Shown here: piece by piece, positions 3,408 to 35,975 of the stretch
How positions within the stretch are numbered: position 1 is the first letter of the stretch
How the letters are laid out: each line of letters starts with the position of its first letter
Source of the DNA: Erysipelotrichaceae bacterium
GTDB taxonomy: Bacteria > Bacillota_I > Bacilli_A > RF39 > UBA660
Assembly: GCA_022772985.1 (NCBI GenBank)
Contig: JALEZJ010000103.1
Coordinates: 1-50,737 of the forward strand
Reading direction: 5' to 3'
Length of the DNA: 50,737 nucleotides
Made by a program: the position numbers and the translations under genes
The notes under the pieces: model-generated
Database searches by the model: none
The model's input: only the letters and a program-made list of their open reading frames with translations
Told to the model about the DNA's origin: nothing

Positions 3408-6400
3408 CATAAATTCTTCTTCTAGAACTTCTGATGGTTCTTCATCATAAAATTCTTTTTCTAGACTATAGCCAATATCCATATATTCTTTGGCGCCTGT
3501 TCCAGCAGGGATTAATTTTCCAATGATAACATTTTCTTTTAATCCATGTAATTTATCGGTTGCTCCTTTGACAGCAGCCTCTGTTAGTATTCTTGTTGTT
3601 TCTTGGAAGGATGCAGATGATAGGAAGGAATCTGTTTGTAATGCAGCTTTGGTAATACCAAGTAGAATTGGTTGTCCTATTGCTGGTTTCTTTCCTTGAA
3701 TGATGACATCTCTATTTCCATTTGTAAAGTCAGAGATAGATACTACTGTACTTGGTACAAAATTGGTATCTCCAGCGTCTTGGACTCTAATTAGAGAGAT
3801 CATTCTCTTAGCAATTAATTCTACGTGTTTATCATTAATATCAACACCTTGTGATCTATATACTTTTTGTACTTCTTTTAAGATGTATTGTTGGACTGTA
3901 TTTGGATCAGTTACTGCTAATAATTCTTTTGGAGAGACACTACCTTCTGTTAATTGGTCTCCTGCATTAATTTTATCTCCTTTTTCTACTTTAAGTTTTG
4001 CACCATACATTGTTAAGTGTTCTCTAACTTCTTTGTCATTCTTGACGTAGATCTTAAATCTACCATTGGCATCTTCAATTTTTTGAACGGTTCCATCGAT
4101 TTCAGAGATGGTTGCTTTTCCTTTTGGAATACGTGCTTCAAATAACTCTTCAACACGTGGAAGACCTTGAGTAATATCGGTTCCAGCTACTCCACCAGTG
4201 TGGAATGTTCTCATGGTTAACTGGGTTCCTGGTTCTCCAATTGATTGAGCTCCCATAATACCTACGGCTTCTCCAATTTCTACTAGATTTCCGGTTGCTA
4301 AGTTTCTACCATAACATTTTTGACAAACACCATGTGCAGTACGACATGTTAAGACGGTTCTGATTTCCACTGCCGTAATTCCGGCTTTGATAATCTTATC
4401 TGCAATATTTTCGGTAATATAAGTATCTTTTTCACAAATTACTTCTTTTGTTTCTGGATTTATTACTTTTTTGTTAGTAAATCTTCCTAAAATTCTATCA
4501 TAAAGTGGTTCAATAATGCCATCTTTATCGTCTGTAAATGCTGTTACTAGAGATCCTTGAGTAGTTTTACAATCACTTTCTCTTACAATCATATCTTGGG
4601 CTACATCTACTAAACGTCTAGTCATATATCCAGAGTCAGCTGTTTTTAAAGCTGTATCGGCACTACCTTTACGAGCACCGTGAGTAGATAAGAAGAATTC
4701 TGATACTGATAATCCATCATTGAATGATGATAGGATTGGAATTTCTACTGGGTCTCCGTTTGGTTTTGCCATGATACCACGCATACCAGCTAATTGAACA
4801 AAGTTAGAAATAGATCCACGAGCTTTAGAGTTCATCATGATGAAGATTGGATTATCTTCATATTCTTTGGATGCGGCATATTCACTTAATTCTGTTTCGA
4901 TATCTTTTTTGGCTTTGTTCCATACTTCTATTACAAGATCAAGTCTTTCTTTTTCAGTAATTAAACCTCTTTGGAATTGTTTGTTAATTTTCTTAACTTC
5001 TTTGTTACTTGCTTCTACTATTTTTTCTTTGTTTTTACTAGTTACAATATCAGAGTAGGCAATTGTAATTCCAGAGTAAGTGGAATATTTGAATCCTTGG
5101 TCTTTTAATTTGTCAAGGAAAATAGAAGTTTCGGTTGTTCTATAACGTTTGAACATTTGGGCGATAATTTTTTCAAGAGCACCTTTATTGAATGGTTTTG
5201 CTCTTTTCATATTTTTAATTTCTTCTTTAATATCTTTTCCATAATCAATAAAATATTTTGCTGGTGTTACCCCTTCAATATTTTCTGATGATGGTTCATT
5301 TAGATATGGGAAGGAATCTGGTAAGATTTCATTAAAGATAATTTTACCTGGTGTTGTTACTAAATATTTATTTTTATAAGTATCTAAGAATACTTTGTGT
5401 TTAAATGAGTTGACTGGAATAGCAATTCTAGTATGAAGGGTAATCTCTCTTCTTTGATATGCCATAAGAGCTTCATTGGTATTTTTGAAGATTCTTCCCT
5501 CTCCTTCTAATCCATCTTTTTCCATTGTAATATAATAGTTTCCTAAAATCATATCCTGTGATGGAGTTACGATAGGGGATCCATCTTTTGGACTTAAGAT
5601 GTTATTAGCACCTAACATTAAAATTCTTTCTTCGGCTTTGGCTTCTTCTGATAGAGGTACGTGAACAGCCATTTGGTCTCCATCGAAGTCAGCATTAAAT
5701 CCTGTTGTTACTAATGGATGCAAACGAATTGCTTTTCCTGAGATTAGTTTTGGTTCAAAGGCTTGAATACCAAGTCTGTGCAATGTTGGTGCACGGTTTA
5801 GCATTACTGGGTGCTCTTTGATTACTTCTTCTACAACATCCCATACTTTTTCATCTTTATTTTCAATCATTTTTTTAGCTGCTTTGATATTGTTAGCTAA
5901 TTCTTTTGCTACTAAGCCATTGATAACATGTGGTTTGAATAGTTCTAGAGCCATATCTTTTGGAATTCCACATTGATACATTTTTAAGTCTGGTCCTACT
6001 ACGATAACAGAACGACCTGAGTAATCAACACGTTTTCCAAGTAAGTTTTGACGGAAACGTCCTTGCTTTCCTTTTAGCATGCTAGATAATGATTTTAAAG
6101 CACGATTTCCTGCTCCTGTTACACTTCTACCACGACGTCCATTATCGAATAGGGCATCTACGGCTTCTTGTAACATACGTTTTTCATTTTGAATGATAAT
6201 AGATGGAGCTCCTAATTCAATTAGTTTCTTTAAACGATTGTTACGATTGATGACACGTCTATATAAATCATTTAAGTCAGATGTTGCAAAACGTCCACCA
6301 TCTAGTTGAATCATTGGGCGAAGTTCTGGTGGGATGACTGGTAAAGCTTCTAAAATCATCCATTCTGGTTTATTTCCTGAGGTTGCAAATGCATTTAGAA

Positions 6401-10852: not shown

Positions 10853-11128
10853 TTAAATTTCTGTATCTTCTAAATCCTCTTTTAAAAGATTTAAAAATAA
10901 CTTTGATAATTCTTTTAGTCTATTTTCGTCCGTTTCTTCTTGGATCATTATTTTTTCTTCTTTTTTGATTGCTTCTACAATTTTAACATTTTCCATATCT
11001 GGATTTTCTTCTTTATCAATAGGTGCGATTAAATAATATTTTTTTCCGGAGTATTCTAACATTTTTAGAATTGTATATTCACTTTCATCTCCAAGTGTAA
11101 TAATATCATATAATTCTATTTCTTTCAT
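10853..11128 (-). CDS. DUF1292-family small protein
   Basis: This 91-residue acidic protein begins MKEIELYDIITLGDESEYTILKMLEYSGKKYYLIAPIDK. The pattern of a strand-rich opening about 'energy' strands, then EY-x-GKKY-x-L-(I/L), then an acidic linker and a C-terminal helix, matches the DUF1292 family of small Firmicutes proteins (YrzB-like), whose role is unknown. Its ATG overlaps the stop of the upstream membrane protein gene as ATGA, so the two are coupled. Together they lie between rplL and rpoB, a place where Bacilli normally carry at most a methyltransferase gene. Confidence 0.7.
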   Translation of the reverse strand: MKEIELYDIITLGDESEYTILKMLEYSGKKYYLIAPIDKEENPDMENVKIVEAIKKEEKIMIQEETDENRLKELSKLFLNLLKEDLEDTEI

Positions 11129-13206
11129 CTTTGCATTCCTTTCACATTTTGATTTGCAATATCATTGACATTGTACCATCCTTCTGCATAGGCGTTTATT
11201 TCAGCATTTATTAGTGGAGAACTTCCATCATAATCTTGAAGATACTTTTCTTGATTGGCAGTTAGAATACTTACCACTTCGCCACCATTTTTAATTAATT
11301 CATCTATTTTTTGGTTGGCTAATTCATCACTGGCATAGATTTGGTTCATTCCGTTTTCATTTAAAATTGCTACTCCTAAAATAACTCTTTTATCTGTATT
11401 CTTATAATATGCAGAATAAGAATTTTCACCTAAATAAGCATCATATTCATTATTATATATTCTAGTTCCTTCATTTAACTTAATATTTCCGCCAATTTTT
11501 ATAAAAGATTCTTCTTTATTTTCAATATTTTCATCTTCTAGTATCGTTAAATTTTCTGGACTTGATTCTTTTTCGTCATTACTTTGATTAGATTGCTGTG
11601 ATGTCGTATCTTGCTTTTCCGTTTCATTTGTTGTCTTTTCTTGACTAGATGTTTTATCTACATTTTCCGCTTTAGTAACTATATCATCCCCAGCTTTTAT
11701 TTGATAAGGATTTTCTAAATCATTTAAACTTTTTTCAATTTCTTTTTCTAAATCGGTGTTTTTAACATCATTTTCTGAAACACTTTCTGTTGTTGCTTTT
11801 GCTGACTTTGACTCTTTTCTATTGTTTATTAATTCGCTAGCTCCAACACTTGTTAATCCTAATATTAACGTAGCTGCAATAACTCCTATTCTGACTTTTA
11901 TTTCTTTATCCATATTTTTTAATGATTTTCTTATCTTCGTTACGATGCCAGAAATTGGTTTTTTGGTATTATTTTTTTGAAGAATTGGTTGGTTTTCATC
12001 TGAAATAAGTTCTTTTACTGGTACAGATTTATTTTTTATATCATCATTATTTCCAATTGATATGTATTCTTCTTTTGACCATGGTGCTTTGTTAATATCT
12101 TCTGCTTTTGCTTCTTCATATATATCATTCATAAATAAGCCATTTATATTTTGATATGAGCTAGGTTCATTAAAATTATCTTGAGCTATTTTTTTCTGTT
12201 GGATTGGAGCTACATAATCAGGAGAATTAATCGTTGGGGTAGCTTTTTCCATTATCTGGTTCCAACTATTGGCTGCTTTTTCAAAATTTGGTGTATATGG
12301 TGGAATATCGCTCAAAGATTCTTTGCTGGAAATAGATTTTTCTATTTCTTCATAATAATCATCTTTTGGTTCTTCTATTCCAGCTTGATTTCTAATATTC
12401 TGCCACAATTTTTGAGAATTTCTAAAATTTACGGATTTAGATGATAAATTTTGATTTTCATCTCTTTCTTCAAAAAGAGGTAGTGGATATGGTTGATTTG
12501 ATTTATTTAATAAATCATCTGGTTCATTGGTCTTTTTAGAATCATTTTGTTCTATAGAAAACTCTGTTTCGATTGGTTTTGGTATTTCTTGTTTTTTCGA
12601 ATAAAATTGATCAAAATGATCTTCATTTTCACTTATTACTGCTGATTCGGGAGATGGTTGTTTTGTTTCATTTAATTTTTTTCTTTCGTCTTCTGATAAG
12701 TAATCCATCATTAATCTATTAATTAATTGTTTTTCTAAATCGGTATCGGTTGATGAATTCATCTCGTGCATTGAAACTTCACTCTTACTATCTTTTAGTA
12801 AATCATCCATAATCGGTTCTAATGGGGGATCTTCCGCTAGATCTTCTTGTTTCTTTTGTTCAGAAATGTTTTCCTTATTTAATAATGTTTGAGCCATAAT
12901 TTGAGCAACGATATCTTCTTCATCCGTTACTGAACTATTTGATAATGACTGTGCATTTTTCATTGTACTTAGATTTTCATTTTCTACTACTGAATTATCT
13001 TTTGATTCTTTTATAACTTCTGTACGGAAATTTGCCATATTACTGATACTATTAGAAATAGCCTTTTGCATGATTTTTAATTCCTGTAATGCTTTTTCGT
13101 CATCTTCTTCTCTTGGGGTTTTGGAATTTTGATATTTTGATACATTTTCATCTATCTTTCTTTTTATTTTTTCTAATTCTTGGTATATTTCCCTTACATC
13201 TTTCAT
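11125..13206 (-). CDS. Single-pass membrane protein with a long disordered cytoplasmic region, unknown function
   Basis: From the ATG at 13206 (GAGAGGTGA site, MKDVREIYQ) it has 693 residues; an in-frame start 10 codons upstream has no ribosome site. Residues 1-60 look like a short coiled coil (EIYQELEKIKRKID). About 370 residues of Asp/Glu/Ser/Asn-rich disordered sequence follow, then a basic stretch (KIRKSLKNMDKEIKVR) and one membrane segment at about 438-458 (IGVIAATLILGLTSVGA). The basic flank puts the N-terminus inside the cell. A Ser/Thr/Glu-rich linker leads to an outer domain of about 110 residues starting near KIGGNIKLNEGTRIY. No known family recognised. It has its own promoter and lies between rplL and rpoB. 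Confidence 0.8.
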   Translation of the reverse strand: MKDVREIYQELEKIKRKIDENVSKYQNSKTPREEDDEKALQELKIMQKAISNSISNMANFRTEVIKESKDNSVVENENLSTMKNAQSLSNSSVTDEEDIVAQIMAQTLLNKENISEQKKQEDLAEDPPLEPIMDDLLKDSKSEVSMHEMNSSTDTDLEKQLINRLMMDYLSEDERKKLNETKQPSPESAVISENEDHFDQFYSKKQEIPKPIETEFSIEQNDSKKTNEPDDLLNKSNQPYPLPLFEERDENQNLSSKSVNFRNSQKLWQNIRNQAGIEEPKDDYYEEIEKSISSKESLSDIPPYTPNFEKAANSWNQIMEKATPTINSPDYVAPIQQKKIAQDNFNEPSSYQNINGLFMNDIYEEAKAEDINKAPWSKEEYISIGNNDDIKNKSVPVKELISDENQPILQKNNTKKPISGIVTKIRKSLKNMDKEIKVRIGVIAATLILGLTSVGASELINNRKESKSAKATTESVSENDVKNTDLEKEIEKSLNDLENPYQIKAGDDIVTKAENVDKTSSQEKTTNETEKQDTTSQQSNQSNDEKESSPENLTILEDENIENKEESFIKIGGNIKLNEGTRIYNNEYDAYLGENSYSAYYKNTDKRVILGVAILNENGMNQIYASDELANQKIDELIKNGGEVVSILTANQEKYLQDYDGSSPLINAEINAYAEGWYNVNDIANQNVKGMQR

Positions 13207-13226
13207 AGTATTCACCTCTCGGTAAT

Positions 13227-13255
13227 ATATTAACATATTATTTATGGTTATTCAA
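13227..13255 (-). promoter_or_regulatory. Promoter of the inserted membrane-protein gene
   Basis: TTGAAT (13255-13250), 17-nt spacer, TAATAT (13232-13227), about 20 nt before the ATG at 13206. Confidence 0.6.
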
Positions 13256-30848: not shown

Positions 30849-32150
30849 TTATCGATATTCTTTTAGTAAGTCTTGCATCGCTTCTTGTTCTTCTTGAGAT
30901 GCTTGTTGTTTTTCTATTTTTTTATCGAACCAATCTGGGATTTTTTCTTCTTTTACTATCTTTTGTTTCGTTGTAGGAGTGCTGTTATTTTTTCGATATT
31001 TTTTATGTTCTTTTTCAGCTACTCGCATGGCTTCATCTACTGTTTCAATATTTAATCTCATCCATTGTCCTGCGATGGTTTCAGCTAAGTTTCTAGTTAA
31101 TTTGTTATTATTGGTTTTTAAGATATAATCAATTAAAACATTTACAACTCCTGGTTTTAGTCCATAGCTGATGATTAGGTCTTCTGCTAATTTTAAATCT
31201 CTAGTTGTTGGTTCTGAACCATTGTTTTTGCTTTTTAATAATTCATATGGACTGATAGTTTCAAAAGTATAGATCATTTTAGCTCTTTTGGAAGTATCTC
31301 CTACTGGTTCTTTTAGATATTCTGGTTGATTATTATAAACAACACTAGGAAGAAGTCCATGATTATCAAATTGATAAAAATTACGGCAAGTTTTTCTTAA
31401 TTCTTCTTTATTAATGGTACCTCGTTCTGTTATACAAATAGGAATAATATCTTGCATTTTAATTACATCTAGTTGGTAGAGAAAAGATAGTTGTAAAATT
31501 AGTTCTTTGATTTCTTTTGTAAAAATTTTATTTTTATCTAGACTACTCGGAAGGGAATCTGCTAAGAAAGCAAAATCAAAATTAGTATCAATATTTAATT
31601 TTTGAATATTTTTCTTTCTAATATCTTCATTCAATACTTCATAGGAAGTTAATGGGACTGAGGTAAATACTTCTGAAAAAGAGACTGTAATATCTTGATA
31701 ACTAGAGGTATTAATTCTAGGAGTTTTGAAATAATTTTTTAATTTATCATATTCTTTTTTTCCTAAGTTATTATATAAAACAACATTTAGAATAGGATGA
31801 TTAAAGAAATCACTTGCTTTGATTGGAGAATACAACTGATAAATATAGTTATTGATATTTTCTTCTTTAAAGAAGGTCTTTAAAAGGCCAATTGCTTCTA
31901 ATTTTTGTCTTGCTTCTAGGATTTCGGTTAACGATATTTGCATGTTTGTTACTAGATGGTGATGGGTATATTCTGTACTCATTAATTCCATTTTATCTAA
32001 GTCTGACCATAAAGAAAAATATAGCATAATGGAAAGAGGTCCGATGATTGGTTGGTATAACATGGTTAATATGTTTCTGTCTTCTGCTGTAATAATACTT
32101 TTATTTACAACAATATAAGTGTCCGCTGGGGAGATATTTAATTCTTTCAT
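30849..32150 (-). CDS. dnaB: Replication initiation protein DnaB (Bacillus type)
   Basis: This 433-residue protein is the Bacillus-type DnaB, a helicase co-loader and membrane-attachment protein, not the E. coli helicase of that name. The N-terminal region (AEDRNILTMLYQPIIGPLSIMLYFSLWSDLD) and the later DnaD-like helical domain (LKLAEDLIISYGLKPGVVNVLIDYILKTNNNKL) match the family. It precedes dnaI. A promoter TTTACT-N17-TAAAAT is 24-52 nt upstream, after the terminator of the membrane-protein pair. Confidence 0.9.
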   Translation of the reverse strand: MKELNISPADTYIVVNKSIITAEDRNILTMLYQPIIGPLSIMLYFSLWSDLDKMELMSTEYTHHHLVTNMQISLTEILEARQKLEAIGLLKTFFKEENINNYIYQLYSPIKASDFFNHPILNVVLYNNLGKKEYDKLKNYFKTPRINTSSYQDITVSFSEVFTSVPLTSYEVLNEDIRKKNIQKLNIDTNFDFAFLADSLPSSLDKNKIFTKEIKELILQLSFLYQLDVIKMQDIIPICITERGTINKEELRKTCRNFYQFDNHGLLPSVVYNNQPEYLKEPVGDTSKRAKMIYTFETISPYELLKSKNNGSEPTTRDLKLAEDLIISYGLKPGVVNVLIDYILKTNNNKLTRNLAETIAGQWMRLNIETVDEAMRVAEKEHKKYRKNNSTPTTKQKIVKEEKIPDWFDKKIEKQQASQEEQEAMQDLLKEYR

Positions 32151-32173
32151 ACAACCACTGTCCTCTTAAATAC

Positions 32174-32202
32174 ATTTTATAATAAATAAGGGGAAAAGTA
32201 AA
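32174..32202 (-). promoter_or_regulatory. dnaB-dnaI promoter
   Basis: TTTACT (32202-32197), 17-nt spacer, TAAAAT (32179-32174). Confidence 0.5.
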
Positions 32203-32228
32203 GGGAAATTGATGGGTTTTAAAATAGT

Positions 32229-32252
32229 AAAAAAAGGAACGTTTTAGGTTCC
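32229..32252 (-). terminator. Terminator of the membrane-protein pair
   Basis: GGAAC/GTTCC stem with a 7-nt loop, then seven T residues on the minus strand. Confidence 0.75.
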
Positions 32253-32299
32253 TAGAGTCGTTTAAAATACTTATTTTTTTCTTTTCTTTTTAGAGATAA

Positions 32300-33970
32300 T
32301 TATTTTTTAGATATCGTGTTTTCTTTTATTTTTCTTTTTACTTTGTTTAGTTCTTGGTTGTTTGAGGCTGGTAAATATTTTAATTCTTCTAATAGATTGT
32401 TTTGAAGAATTTCATGATTATTTTCTATTAAAGAAAGTGTTTGATTTAGTTCATATAATTCTTTTTCTAATTCTATTTGTTCTTCTTTTTGTTTTTGAAG
32501 TGATTCTATTGCTGTTTTTATACATCTAAGACGAATTTGGAATCTGTTGTTTAATAAAAATATTTCTAGACTTAATGCTCCCACCTCACTTATTGCTAAT
32601 AGGATTCCATATAATAAGTTATTTTGTTTTTGATAAATATTATCTAAATCATAATGAATTTCTGTAATTATGTATTGTGGTTCTTGATATACGTCTTCTA
32701 TATGTATATAGTCAGATTTTTCTTCTGTTACAGAGGGAGTATAGTCTTCTAAATTGATAGAAGCATAATCTCTTATATCTTCATAATTTAGAGAACTAAG
32801 ATCATAAGTTAATACTTCTTGATAGTAATCGTGAGATAATAATCCGTTTTCTTCTGTTTCTTTATCGTACCAAGGATTATATTGTTTTAGTATTCTACTA
32901 TCTGTTAATGTTAATATCCTTTTTAACCATATTTCCTTTTGTTCTTTCTTTACTTCGTCTTTATTTATATCATAAGTTGTTTTATGTTCGGAAACATAAT
33001 TTATAGTAGATACTTTTTTTGAAATAGCGTTTGCACCTATCATAGTTGTAATTACTAGAGCTAGTTGACCTATTATTAATGTTATATGTCTTATTAGATG
33101 ATTTTGGATTCTTTTTTTATTTATGCTTACTTCTTCTAGTTCTTTTTCTAAATTATTTTTTCTTATCTTTTTGTCTTTTATTTCCTTTTGTTGTTGTTCT
33201 AGATCTTGAACTTGGATTACTAATTTTTTTTCTAAAGTAGATAAATCTTTTTTATGATTATGAAATTTTAATAAATTTAATAATTCATCATCTAAAAAAT
33301 TATTATCGAGTCCTTTTGTTTTTAATTCATTATAACGTATTTTTATTTTTTCATTTTCATTTTTGGATAAATCTAGTGATTGGATTTCTTCTAATAAGTA
33401 TTTTTCTACATTAATTGTATTTAGATCACTTTTTTTGACTTCCTCTAATAATATACTTTTTCTTTTATAAATTAATTCTAGTTTTATTACTTGATATGTT
33501 AACTTATAAATCTGGTTTGCTAAGTATTCTTTTGATTTATCAATATTTTTTATAGAAAATAACAAACTTATCATTAATTCAATTGTAATAGTTAAGTTTT
33601 CTTCTGTTACGTCTTTTATTCTATTTTTTATTGTTTTCATATTATTATCTATTTCATGATAAAAGCCATCTTTTTTGATAGCATTATTATATTCTTCTTG
33701 GATTAGATTTTTTACTTTATCAAGTTTTGTAATCGCATTTCTATAGCACCATTCTATTCTTCCATCTTTTAATAAGTTATTGGTTAATTCTTCAGCACTT
33801 AAATTTTGATAAGATTCATCAATAGACTGCATCAGTTCTTGTTCTATTTTTGTTAGAATTAATTCTATTTTAGAGGTATCATTTCCTAGTTCTTGAATTA
33901 GTTTTAAATATTTTTTTATTTCTAATTTCTCTTTTAAATAGATTAATTTTTGTTCTTCTGTGATAGTCAT
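32300..33970 (-). CDS. Coiled-coil protein with two membrane segments, paralog B
   Basis: From the ATG at 33970 (AGGATG site) it has 556 residues; in-frame ATGs up to 33991 overlap the upstream gene. The N-terminal 290 residues are helical and coiled-coil rich, then come a membrane segment at about 294-315 (LIIGQLALVITTMIGA), an outer region of about 140 residues with YNPWYD and YQEVLTYDLSSLNYEDIRDY, a second membrane segment at about 452-474 (ILLAISEVGALSLEIFLL) and a C-terminal coiled coil. The outer motif and the order of parts match the upstream paralog. Family and function unknown. Lys-rich flanks suggest that both ends are cytoplasmic. Confidence 0.8.
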   Translation of the reverse strand: MTITEEQKLIYLKEKLEIKKYLKLIQELGNDTSKIELILTKIEQELMQSIDESYQNLSAEELTNNLLKDGRIEWCYRNAITKLDKVKNLIQEEYNNAIKKDGFYHEIDNNMKTIKNRIKDVTEENLTITIELMISLLFSIKNIDKSKEYLANQIYKLTYQVIKLELIYKRKSILLEEVKKSDLNTINVEKYLLEEIQSLDLSKNENEKIKIRYNELKTKGLDNNFLDDELLNLLKFHNHKKDLSTLEKKLVIQVQDLEQQQKEIKDKKIRKNNLEKELEEVSINKKRIQNHLIRHITLIIGQLALVITTMIGANAISKKVSTINYVSEHKTTYDINKDEVKKEQKEIWLKRILTLTDSRILKQYNPWYDKETEENGLLSHDYYQEVLTYDLSSLNYEDIRDYASINLEDYTPSVTEEKSDYIHIEDVYQEPQYIITEIHYDLDNIYQKQNNLLYGILLAISEVGALSLEIFLLNNRFQIRLRCIKTAIESLQKQKEEQIELEKELYELNQTLSLIENNHEILQNNLLEELKYLPASNNQELNKVKRKIKENTISKK

Positions 33971-33980
33971 TATCATCATC

Positions 33981-35615
33981 CTATTCTTCATCTTCGTCGT
34001 TTTCTTGATTATTTTTTAATTTTTTCATTCGTTTTTTTATTGAATTATTTTCTTTTATTGCTACTGGAAGTTCGTTATATTCTTTTAGAATATTTTCTTT
34101 TAATTCTTGATATTGGATTAATAAATCTTCTAAATTTTTACTTTGTTCTAATAATTGTTGTTTTGCTTGTTTCAGTTCTTGTTTTGTTTGTTTTGTTTCT
34201 TTTTTTAAAGATGAAAAACTTTTTTTTATGACAGTAATTAATATTAATAAATCTAATATACTTAAAATAATCGCTTCTATTGTGAGACTTATGAGTAATT
34301 TTTTTTGACTTGGTTCTTCATGAGTATTTTCTAAATCTTGGACGACTTTTTTTATTTCATAAATATTTCCTATATATAAGTCTTCTTCTGCTACTTGTTC
34401 TTTTTCGTCTATCTCACTTGATATCGTAATTTCTTGATCTAATAATTCTTTGTTTAGATAATCCATGATATTGTCATACTCTATATTAGTAGCATCATAG
34501 GTATAAATTTCTCTTGTATATGTATCTCTGAAATAGCCTGGTTCTATCCATGGTAAATATTCTGTAATGATAGTTTTATTTGGTGTTTCTCCTAAATAGG
34601 AAGTTTCTTTTTCTATTTTTCCTGTTTGGGAATTATATGTTTCAGTGGTCGTTTGATAAGTTTTATCTACTGCAAGTGATTCTGTTAATTTATACAATCC
34701 TAGTGCTGATGCTGATACAGAAATGAAATTTCCTAATAAGAATAGACTTTTCTTTAATTTCTTTCTTTTGTAATATTTTCTTTGATCTAATAGTTCTTGC
34801 ATTTTTTTGGAAATATTTTCATTTTCTTTTTGAACACTTTTAATTTTAGTATCCTTTATTTCTACAATTGTACATTTATCTAAAAATGTTTCTTTTTTCT
34901 TATCAAATAGTTCTTCATTATTAATAAGAGATAATAACTTTAAAAATTCCGTTTCTAAAAATAGTGAATTATCAAGGCCTTTCTTTTTAATTTCTAAATA
35001 TTTTTGATGAAGTTCTTTATATATATTTGAATTTAGATCAATTGATTTTAGATCTTTTTCTATGTAACTACAGATATATGAACTACTAATGGAATTTTCT
35101 TTCATATAAGTTAATAATTCTTCTTTGGTGCTATAAAGGGATTCTAGTTTTAAAATTTGATAGGCTACATAATAGACTTTTTCTACTATATTTTCTTCTA
35201 GTTCATAATCTACTTGACTTGTTTCATTTATCTGTTTTATTAGTGTTTTAGCTTCTTTTATATAATTTGTTATGTTTTCTTCTGTTGCTTCTGTTAATTT
35301 TTCTTCTAGGGCTATACTTGCATAATATATCTTATAATATAAGTTATATTCTTGCTTTAAAAATTGGATTTCTCTGTTTAGTTTTTTTATGGCTTTTTCG
35401 TGAGTTTGAATCAATGTATCACTTAAAAAGGTATTTGTTTCTAAATTTTCAAATAAGTTATAATTATTCTTATTGGCTAAATCTACTATTTTTTCAATAG
35501 CTTCTACTTCTTTTTCTATTTTACTAGTATTAAAATCTATTTCTTTTATTTTTTTTATTAATGATTTGATTTCTTTTAGTTTAGATTGATATTCTATTGA
35601 TTTATCTTGATTCAT
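33981..35615 (-). CDS. Coiled-coil protein with two membrane segments, paralog A
   Basis: This 544-residue protein has a helical N-terminal half (residues 1-285), a membrane segment at about 290-309 (LFLLGNFISVSASALGLY), an outer region of about 130 residues with LPWIEPGYFRDTYTREIYTYDATNIEYDNIMDY, a second membrane segment at about 441-463 (TIEAIILSILDLLILITVI) and a Lys-rich C-terminal coiled coil. It is a paralog of the next gene, from the shared NPW/LPW, TYD and DY positions and the shared KKGLDNS/TKGLDNN turn. I recognise no family. An AAAGGAG site and a perfect consensus promoter precede it; it overlaps the next gene slightly. Confidence 0.8.
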   Translation of the reverse strand: MNQDKSIEYQSKLKEIKSLIKKIKEIDFNTSKIEKEVEAIEKIVDLANKNNYNLFENLETNTFLSDTLIQTHEKAIKKLNREIQFLKQEYNLYYKIYYASIALEEKLTEATEENITNYIKEAKTLIKQINETSQVDYELEENIVEKVYYVAYQILKLESLYSTKEELLTYMKENSISSSYICSYIEKDLKSIDLNSNIYKELHQKYLEIKKKGLDNSLFLETEFLKLLSLINNEELFDKKKETFLDKCTIVEIKDTKIKSVQKENENISKKMQELLDQRKYYKRKKLKKSLFLLGNFISVSASALGLYKLTESLAVDKTYQTTTETYNSQTGKIEKETSYLGETPNKTIITEYLPWIEPGYFRDTYTREIYTYDATNIEYDNIMDYLNKELLDQEITISSEIDEKEQVAEEDLYIGNIYEIKKVVQDLENTHEEPSQKKLLISLTIEAIILSILDLLILITVIKKSFSSLKKETKQTKQELKQAKQQLLEQSKNLEDLLIQYQELKENILKEYNELPVAIKENNSIKKRMKKLKNNQENDEDEE

Positions 35616-35831
35616 TGTAATTCTCCTTTAGTTATTTATTATAAACTGAATGACTTTTTTCTTATTTTTATTTTTTATATTCTTTTTTCAATATTTACTT
35701 TTTTTCTTTTGTAATTTTGATATTAATTCAGCTAATATTATCAAATTTCTTAATATTACTGGTTAAAAAGATTTTTTATTTTCTTTCAGTCTTTCTTACA
35801 ATATACTATAATTTTTTATAAATTTTTTTGT
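35616..35831 (-). promoter_or_regulatory. Long A-rich leader of the membrane-protein pair
   Basis: The region from the transcription start near 35832 to the ATG at 35615 is an untranslated stretch of about 215 nt, A-rich on the coding strand with no clear hairpin or riboswitch motif. I see no open frame in it. Confidence 0.35.
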
Positions 35832-35838
35832 GATTTTT

Positions 35839-35867
35839 ATTATAGTAACCATTTCTTTTTTTGTCAA
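35839..35867 (-). promoter_or_regulatory. Consensus promoter of the membrane-protein pair
   Basis: A perfect TTGACA (35867-35862), 17-nt spacer, TATAAT (35844-35839). One of the strongest-looking promoters in the window. Confidence 0.8.
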
Positions 35868-35933
35868 TGGAATTGGAGTTTCTTTTATTTTCATTATGAT
35901 ACAAAAAAAGGAAAATTTTATTTTTCAGTATTT

Positions 35934-35975
35934 TAATAAAAAAAATAAGATAGTTATTAGATTCTATCTTATTTT
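35934..35975 (-). terminator. aspS terminator, containing the aspS stop codon
   Basis: A perfect 12-bp stem AAAATAAGATAG/CTATCTTATTTT with a 10-nt loop ends in T8 on the minus strand. The aspS stop TAG (35966-35964) is in the ascending arm. Confidence 0.9.

What the first reader, a model, noticed from the sequence alone, without database searches (positions are those of the whole stretch)
32300..35867. Paired coiled-coil membrane paralogs under a perfect promoter
Two tandem proteins share a coiled coil / membrane / outer 130-140 residues / membrane / coiled coil layout, with common outer motifs (PW, then TYD and DY). They have a TTGACA-N17-TATAAT promoter and an A-rich 215-nt leader, suggesting an abundant hetero-complex at the membrane. 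No known family comes to mind, so this is my main candidate for an undescribed system.
Basis: partly seen in the sequence, partly recalled or inferred. Interest (0 to 1): 0.6.

Follow-up and report, generated by a model that had tools for sequence, protein, structure and literature searches.

The report
Orphan membrane-protein pair from gut Bacilli
Two neighbouring genes encode distantly related membrane proteins of a previously unnamed family, found so far in only one lineage of uncultured gut bacteria, that carry a compact outer domain of unrecognised fold and an inner helical domain; short relatives elsewhere sit beside an amide-bond-forming enzyme, which hints at a role in the cell envelope, but the function is unproven.

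Summary
Two overlapping genes (32300-33991 and 33981-35615, minus strand) encode paralogs, 27% identical over nearly full length (E 6.6e-27). They lie between a perfect TTGACA-17-TATAAT promoter (0.03 expected in the window), a 217-nt, 58% A leader and a terminator-like hairpin. AlphaFold (pLDDT 87) corrects the layout: a helical cytoplasmic domain of about 230 residues, a long helix into the membrane, a compact six-stranded outer domain (alone: pLDDT 94, pTM 0.82), then a second long helix.

No Pfam, NCBIfam, PADLOC or PDB-sequence family matches, and Foldseek finds nothing against PDB or BFVD. The family is real, under purifying selection, and seen only in one GTDB family: about 8% of 386 genomes, singly or in tandem arrays of 2-8. 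Short forms, lacking the cytoplasmic domain, lie directly upstream of an Amidoligase_2 gene in about ten genomes.

The obligate hetero-complex is not supported: the two genes fall in different clades, each found alone elsewhere. Best guess (0.4): a membrane-spanning envelope sensor/tether whose outer domain binds an envelope ligand and controls or positions a cytoplasmic helical module (a separate amidoligase in short forms). This is a new family; its function remains inference.

The parts
35839..35867 (-). sigma-70-type promoter TTGACA-N17-TATAAT, 12/12
   Evidence: 3 in the window, 0.03 expected
35616..35832 (-). 5' leader of about 217 nt, 58% A; no Rfam match
   Evidence: transcription start inferred from the -10 box
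35623..35628 (-). Shine-Dalgarno AAGGAG of the first gene
33981..35615 (-). first gene, 544-aa long-form family member (P0002)
34674..34754 (-). P0002 first membrane helix, residues 288-314, preceded by KYYKRKKLKK (positive-inside, so N-terminus in)
34311..34670 (-). P0002 outer beta domain, residues 316-435, six strands
   Evidence: alone pLDDT 93.7, pTM 0.82
34227..34301 (-). P0002 second membrane helix, residues 439-463, followed by a Lys-rich coiled-coil helix (C-terminus in)
32300..33991 (-). second gene, 563-aa paralog (P0001); probable start at 33970 (M8); possible translational coupling to the first gene
32624..33016 (-). P0001 outer domain, about residues 326-456, between membrane helices 305-323 and 462-480
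32235..32253 (-). terminator-like hairpin with T run after the second gene
   Evidence: 2 such sites in the region, 0.7 expected in shuffles

Best explanation
A bicistronic operon for two long-form members of an undescribed membrane-protein family. Each protein crosses the membrane twice, with both ends inside. The outer beta domain (about 120 residues, six strands) binds or reads something in the cell envelope. The two membrane helices continue into the cytoplasm as long helices and carry or position a compact cytoplasmic helical domain. It would thus act as an envelope sensor or tether that links an outside condition to a cytoplasmic output. In short forms of the family the cytoplasmic domain is missing, and the output would be supplied by a separate enzyme, an amidoligase encoded directly downstream. 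Shown: genes, paralogy, operon signals, topology by model, family membership, purifying selection, tandem expansion, amidoligase linkage of the short forms. Inferred: ligand binding, signal or tether role, oligomerisation, envelope function.
For: Two-membrane-helix, both-ends-in topology and a confident outer domain. Outer and cytoplasmic domains are both kept under purifying selection (for example dN about 0.2 vs dS 1-2 between G013 and its relative), while membrane helices drift to 14-38% identity in most pairs. A near-invariant YxxxYxxIKxExxxxxS motif in the cytoplasmic domain (E158 97%). Short forms share the outer domain (profile match prob 98.8, E 8.7e-17) and lie immediately upstream of Amidoligase_2 genes in about ten genomes. 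One long-form clade (4 genomes) is encoded divergently from a conserved lipoprotein gene. Near-consensus promoters are enriched.
Against: No catalytic or known signalling domain, no fold match and no constant neighbour for the long forms. The window's genome has no detectable amidoligase. The G001 relative has lost most of the outer domain, so that domain is not always needed. Patchy distribution and tandem arrays also fit defence or immunity roles.
Confidence: 0.4

Rival explanations
1. A defence or conflict protein: a membrane protein that protects against phage or rival toxins (such as an immunity protein), gained, lost and duplicated locally.
For: Patchy presence (about 8% of genomes); strong divergence; tandem arrays up to 8 copies filling a contig; three short-form or divergent loci next to a tyrosine integrase and one next to a serine recombinase; the slot between dnaB and aspS holds different genes in other species of the genus.
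Against: No PADLOC match; no defence or toxin genes beside the long forms, most of which lie among housekeeping genes; no match in phages, plasmids or viral contigs; purifying selection on the outer domain, not diversification.
Confidence: 0.25
2. An obligate hetero-oligomeric structural complex of the two paralogs, made in large amounts.
For: Same operon with overlapping genes, perfect promoter, matching architecture.
Against: Each clade is found singly in other genomes and most family genomes carry one copy; this pair was not found elsewhere. A hetero-dimer prediction could not be run.
Confidence: 0.2
3. A cell-division or cell-shape scaffold using coiled coils, resembling ZapG or EzrA in action.
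For: Weak ZapG-like hit (E 0.0026) on the C-terminal helix.
Against: Score 18.2 against a cut-off of 33.5 and confined to the coiled coil; patchy distribution is unlike a division protein; the outer beta domain is not explained.
Confidence: 0.1

Closest known systems
Short-form/amidoligase gene pairs found here (Amidoligase_2, PF12224)
   Same: Share the two-membrane-helix topology and a homologous outer domain with the window proteins.
   Different: Short forms lack the cytoplasmic helical domain and pair with an enzyme; the window genes have no amidoligase beside them and none was detected in the genome.
ZapG-like (PF06295)
   Same: Membrane-anchored coiled-coil helix; weak match to the C-terminal helix.
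   Different: Far below cut-off; no outer domain or N-terminal helical domain.
Bacterial transmembrane receptors with an extracytoplasmic sensor domain between two membrane helices (from general knowledge)
   Same: An outer sensor-sized domain between two membrane helices joined to long cytoplasmic helices.
   Different: No methyl-accepting, kinase, cyclase or other output domain was matched; the large cytoplasmic domain comes before the first membrane helix.

Membership tests
ZapG-like (PF06295) | Match over the curated Pfam cut-off | tested here: not met
   18.2 bits vs 33.5, coiled coil only
Any Pfam or NCBIfam family | Match over a curated cut-off | tested here: not met
   Window proteins; further family members, Pfam only:
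Known anti-phage defence proteins (PADLOC) | Match to a PADLOC model | tested here: not met
   None at E 0.01
Known structural fold of the outer domain | Significant Foldseek match in PDB or BFVD | tested here: not met
   Best E 0.083 (PDB) and 0.024 (BFVD), TM-scores below 0.3 among those listed; the AlphaFold DB was not available
Amidoligase-linked membrane pair | Homologous outer domain | tested here: met
   Profile-profile E 8.7e-17
Amidoligase-linked membrane pair | Amidoligase gene directly downstream | tested here: not met
   Window neighbours are dnaB and aspS; no PF12224 match in the genome, which is 88.7% complete
New long-form family defined here | Full-length profile match (helical N-domain, membrane helix, outer domain, membrane helix, coiled coil) | tested here: met
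   E 2.5e-125 and 1.3e-114 (both proteins are in the profile, so this is by construction); independent evidence is the mutual BLAST match
Envelope sensor or tether | Outer domain binds an envelope ligand and changes a cytoplasmic output | not testable with these tools
   Needs experiments

The most novel reading that the evidence does not exclude
A lineage-specific transmembrane system in which one kind of outer beta domain is coupled either to a built-in cytoplasmic helical module (long forms, as here) or to a separate amidoligase (short forms), so that an outside envelope cue controls amide-bond modification or its equivalent inside; tandem arrays would diversify the cues.
Probability: 0.15. 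Interest if true: 0.75.

Novelty: categorically new. Interest (0 to 1): 0.45.

Why it matters
The family gives a concrete, testable foothold in the biology of a large, uncultured, small-genome gut lineage. It has an outer domain of unrecognised fold, is locally amplified up to eight copies, and some members are tied to an amide-bond-forming enzyme. If the sensor/tether reading is right, it would be a new way of coupling the envelope to the cytoplasm. The label 'categorically new' applies to the protein family as tested by sequence and fold libraries here, not to a proven mechanism; lineage-restricted orphan membrane families are in themselves common.

Tried and rejected
Fold searches of the whole model and of the outer domain against PDB, and of the outer domain against BFVD: nothing significant. 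Profile against PDB sequences: only coiled-coil level hits, E >= 0.009. Rfam on the leader and genes: none. Mobile or viral origin: no relatives in phages (P0002), plasmids (P0001) or viral contigs. A class-wide search with the long-form profile gave only coiled-coil noise outside the family (best E 5.8e-6); with the short-form profile only noise (best E 1.6e-4; its reading frame lies at hrcA). Antigenic-variation reading: rejected because the outer domain is as conserved as the cytoplasmic one in most pairs. Literature search for such a family: nothing found.

Full report
What is there. On the minus strand two ORFs overlap by 11 nt: 33981-35615 (544 aa, first) and 32300-33991 (563 aa, second; alignment with a relative suggests its real start is M8 at 33970). 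Upstream lies a perfect TTGACA-17-TATAAT promoter (35867-35839); the window holds 3 such sites against 0.03 expected by shuffling. The leader is about 217 nt and 58% A, ending in AAGGAG. A terminator-like hairpin follows the second gene. No Rfam family matches. Flanking genes are dnaB/dnaI/dnaE on one side and aspS/gatBAC on the other (identified by eye from the translations).

Paralogy and architecture. A search of the window's own genome with the 544-aa protein finds only its neighbour (E 6.6e-27, 27% identity, residues 4-536). An AlphaFold model built on 34 family members (pLDDT 87, pTM 0.51) shows a multi-helix cytoplasmic domain (about 1-234), a long helix 234-314 entering the membrane, a beta domain 316-435, and a long helix 437-515. 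The outer domain alone models at pLDDT 93.7, pTM 0.82. Basic stretches just before the first and just after the second membrane helix put both ends inside (positive-inside rule, read from the sequence). The pTM of the whole is modest, so the relative placement of domains is uncertain.

The family. Nothing in Pfam or NCBIfam or PADLOC passes a cut-off; nothing of interest in PDB sequences, PDB structures or viral models. Within the window's GTDB family (f1, uncultured gut Bacilli; the named relatives are from rabbit and roe-deer guts) a first profile found 21 of 386 genomes and a 34-member profile found 39 of 386 at E 1e-4. About 31 of these are convincing by eye; the rest are coiled-coil level. 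Outside f1 only coiled-coil-level hits appear. Members are often single, but tandem arrays are frequent: 2 (window, G068, G117, G074, G106, G164), 3 (G306), 4 (G219, G377, apparently G087) and at least 8 filling a 13.7-kb contig in G233. In a maximum-likelihood tree most tandem copies are close relatives of each other. The window's two are not: the 563-aa protein groups with the only long-form member found in another species of the genus (G001, 100/98) and the 544-aa protein with G108, G254 and G200 (99/96). An AU test of forcing the window pair together gives p 0.053, so sisterhood is disfavoured but not excluded. Both clades occur as singletons elsewhere; G001's single gene stands under its own 12/12 promoter.

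Selection and conserved residues. Between close relatives the cytoplasmic and outer domains have dN well below dS, while the membrane helices drift. Conserved points are YxxxYxxIKxExxxxxS in the cytoplasmic domain and Y, Y, Y, P-W, R, Y-D and Y in the outer domain. This argues for two functional domains and against a merely variable surface antigen.

Neighbourhoods. Long forms sit among unrelated housekeeping genes that are constant only within clades. One clade (G068, G112, G247, G298) is divergent from a conserved lipoprotein gene. Short forms of about 270 aa, which share the outer domain (prob 98.8, E 8.7e-17) but lack the cytoplasmic domain, lie directly upstream of an Amidoligase_2 gene (PF12224) in G006, G198, G275, G310, G349, G200, G273 and G148, and, in more diverged form, G235 and G109. 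Amidoligase_2 occurs in 84 of 367 family genomes, mostly without a short form in the 30 loci read, so the link runs from short form to amidoligase and not the reverse. No amidoligase was detected in the window's genome. A published study of prophages cites Iyer et al. for a phage amidoligase predicted to modify cell-wall receptors (PMC11318856).

Interpretation. The best-supported reading is an envelope-facing membrane protein in which an outer domain is mechanically joined to a cytoplasmic module. Whether it senses, tethers or protects is not shown. The amidoligase link belongs to the short forms, so its extension to the window pair is by homology of the outer domain only. Strong expression is suggested by the promoter and by a modest family-wide enrichment of near-consensus promoters (10/30 vs 33/221 at >=11/12, p 0.017), which does not correct for relatedness. 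The obligate hetero-complex is possible but not required by the comparative evidence.

Limits. The window's genome is 88.7% complete with 6.4% contamination; G001 is 58% complete, so a missing partner there is weak evidence. Detection of so divergent a family is incomplete, and patchiness is partly a detection limit.

Noticed in passing
L134, L136, L137, L139, L140, L161, L164, L173, L177, L167: Short forms of the family directly upstream of an Amidoligase_2 gene in about ten genomes: an undescribed two-gene arrangement that could be studied on its own.
   Followed up: partly
L086 1-13656 (G233:C36): A contig made almost wholly of at least eight tandem family members, two of them short or possibly broken (4058-5260, followed by a gap of about 1 kb).
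   Followed up: partly
L083, L087, L141, L142: A conserved lipoprotein (lipobox, HVH motif) encoded divergently next to one clade of long forms; no Pfam match for the one tested.
   Followed up: partly
L098-L102 vs window 32150-35964: The slot between dnaB and aspS is variable within the genus: a glycerophosphodiesterase-like gene, an RNB-like 720-730 aa gene, an MgtC-like gene or nothing (names by eye).
   Followed up: partly
L143, L144: Four-copy arrays next to a 233-aa sigma factor and anaerobic ribonucleotide reductase genes in two genomes.
   Followed up: no
window 11125-13236: 703-aa protein with an apparent central membrane helix and no Pfam match, between rpoB and the rplL/rplJ genes.
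   Followed up: no
L010 8057-9388: G001 relative has lost nearly all of the outer domain but keeps both membrane helices, under a perfect promoter.
   Followed up: partly
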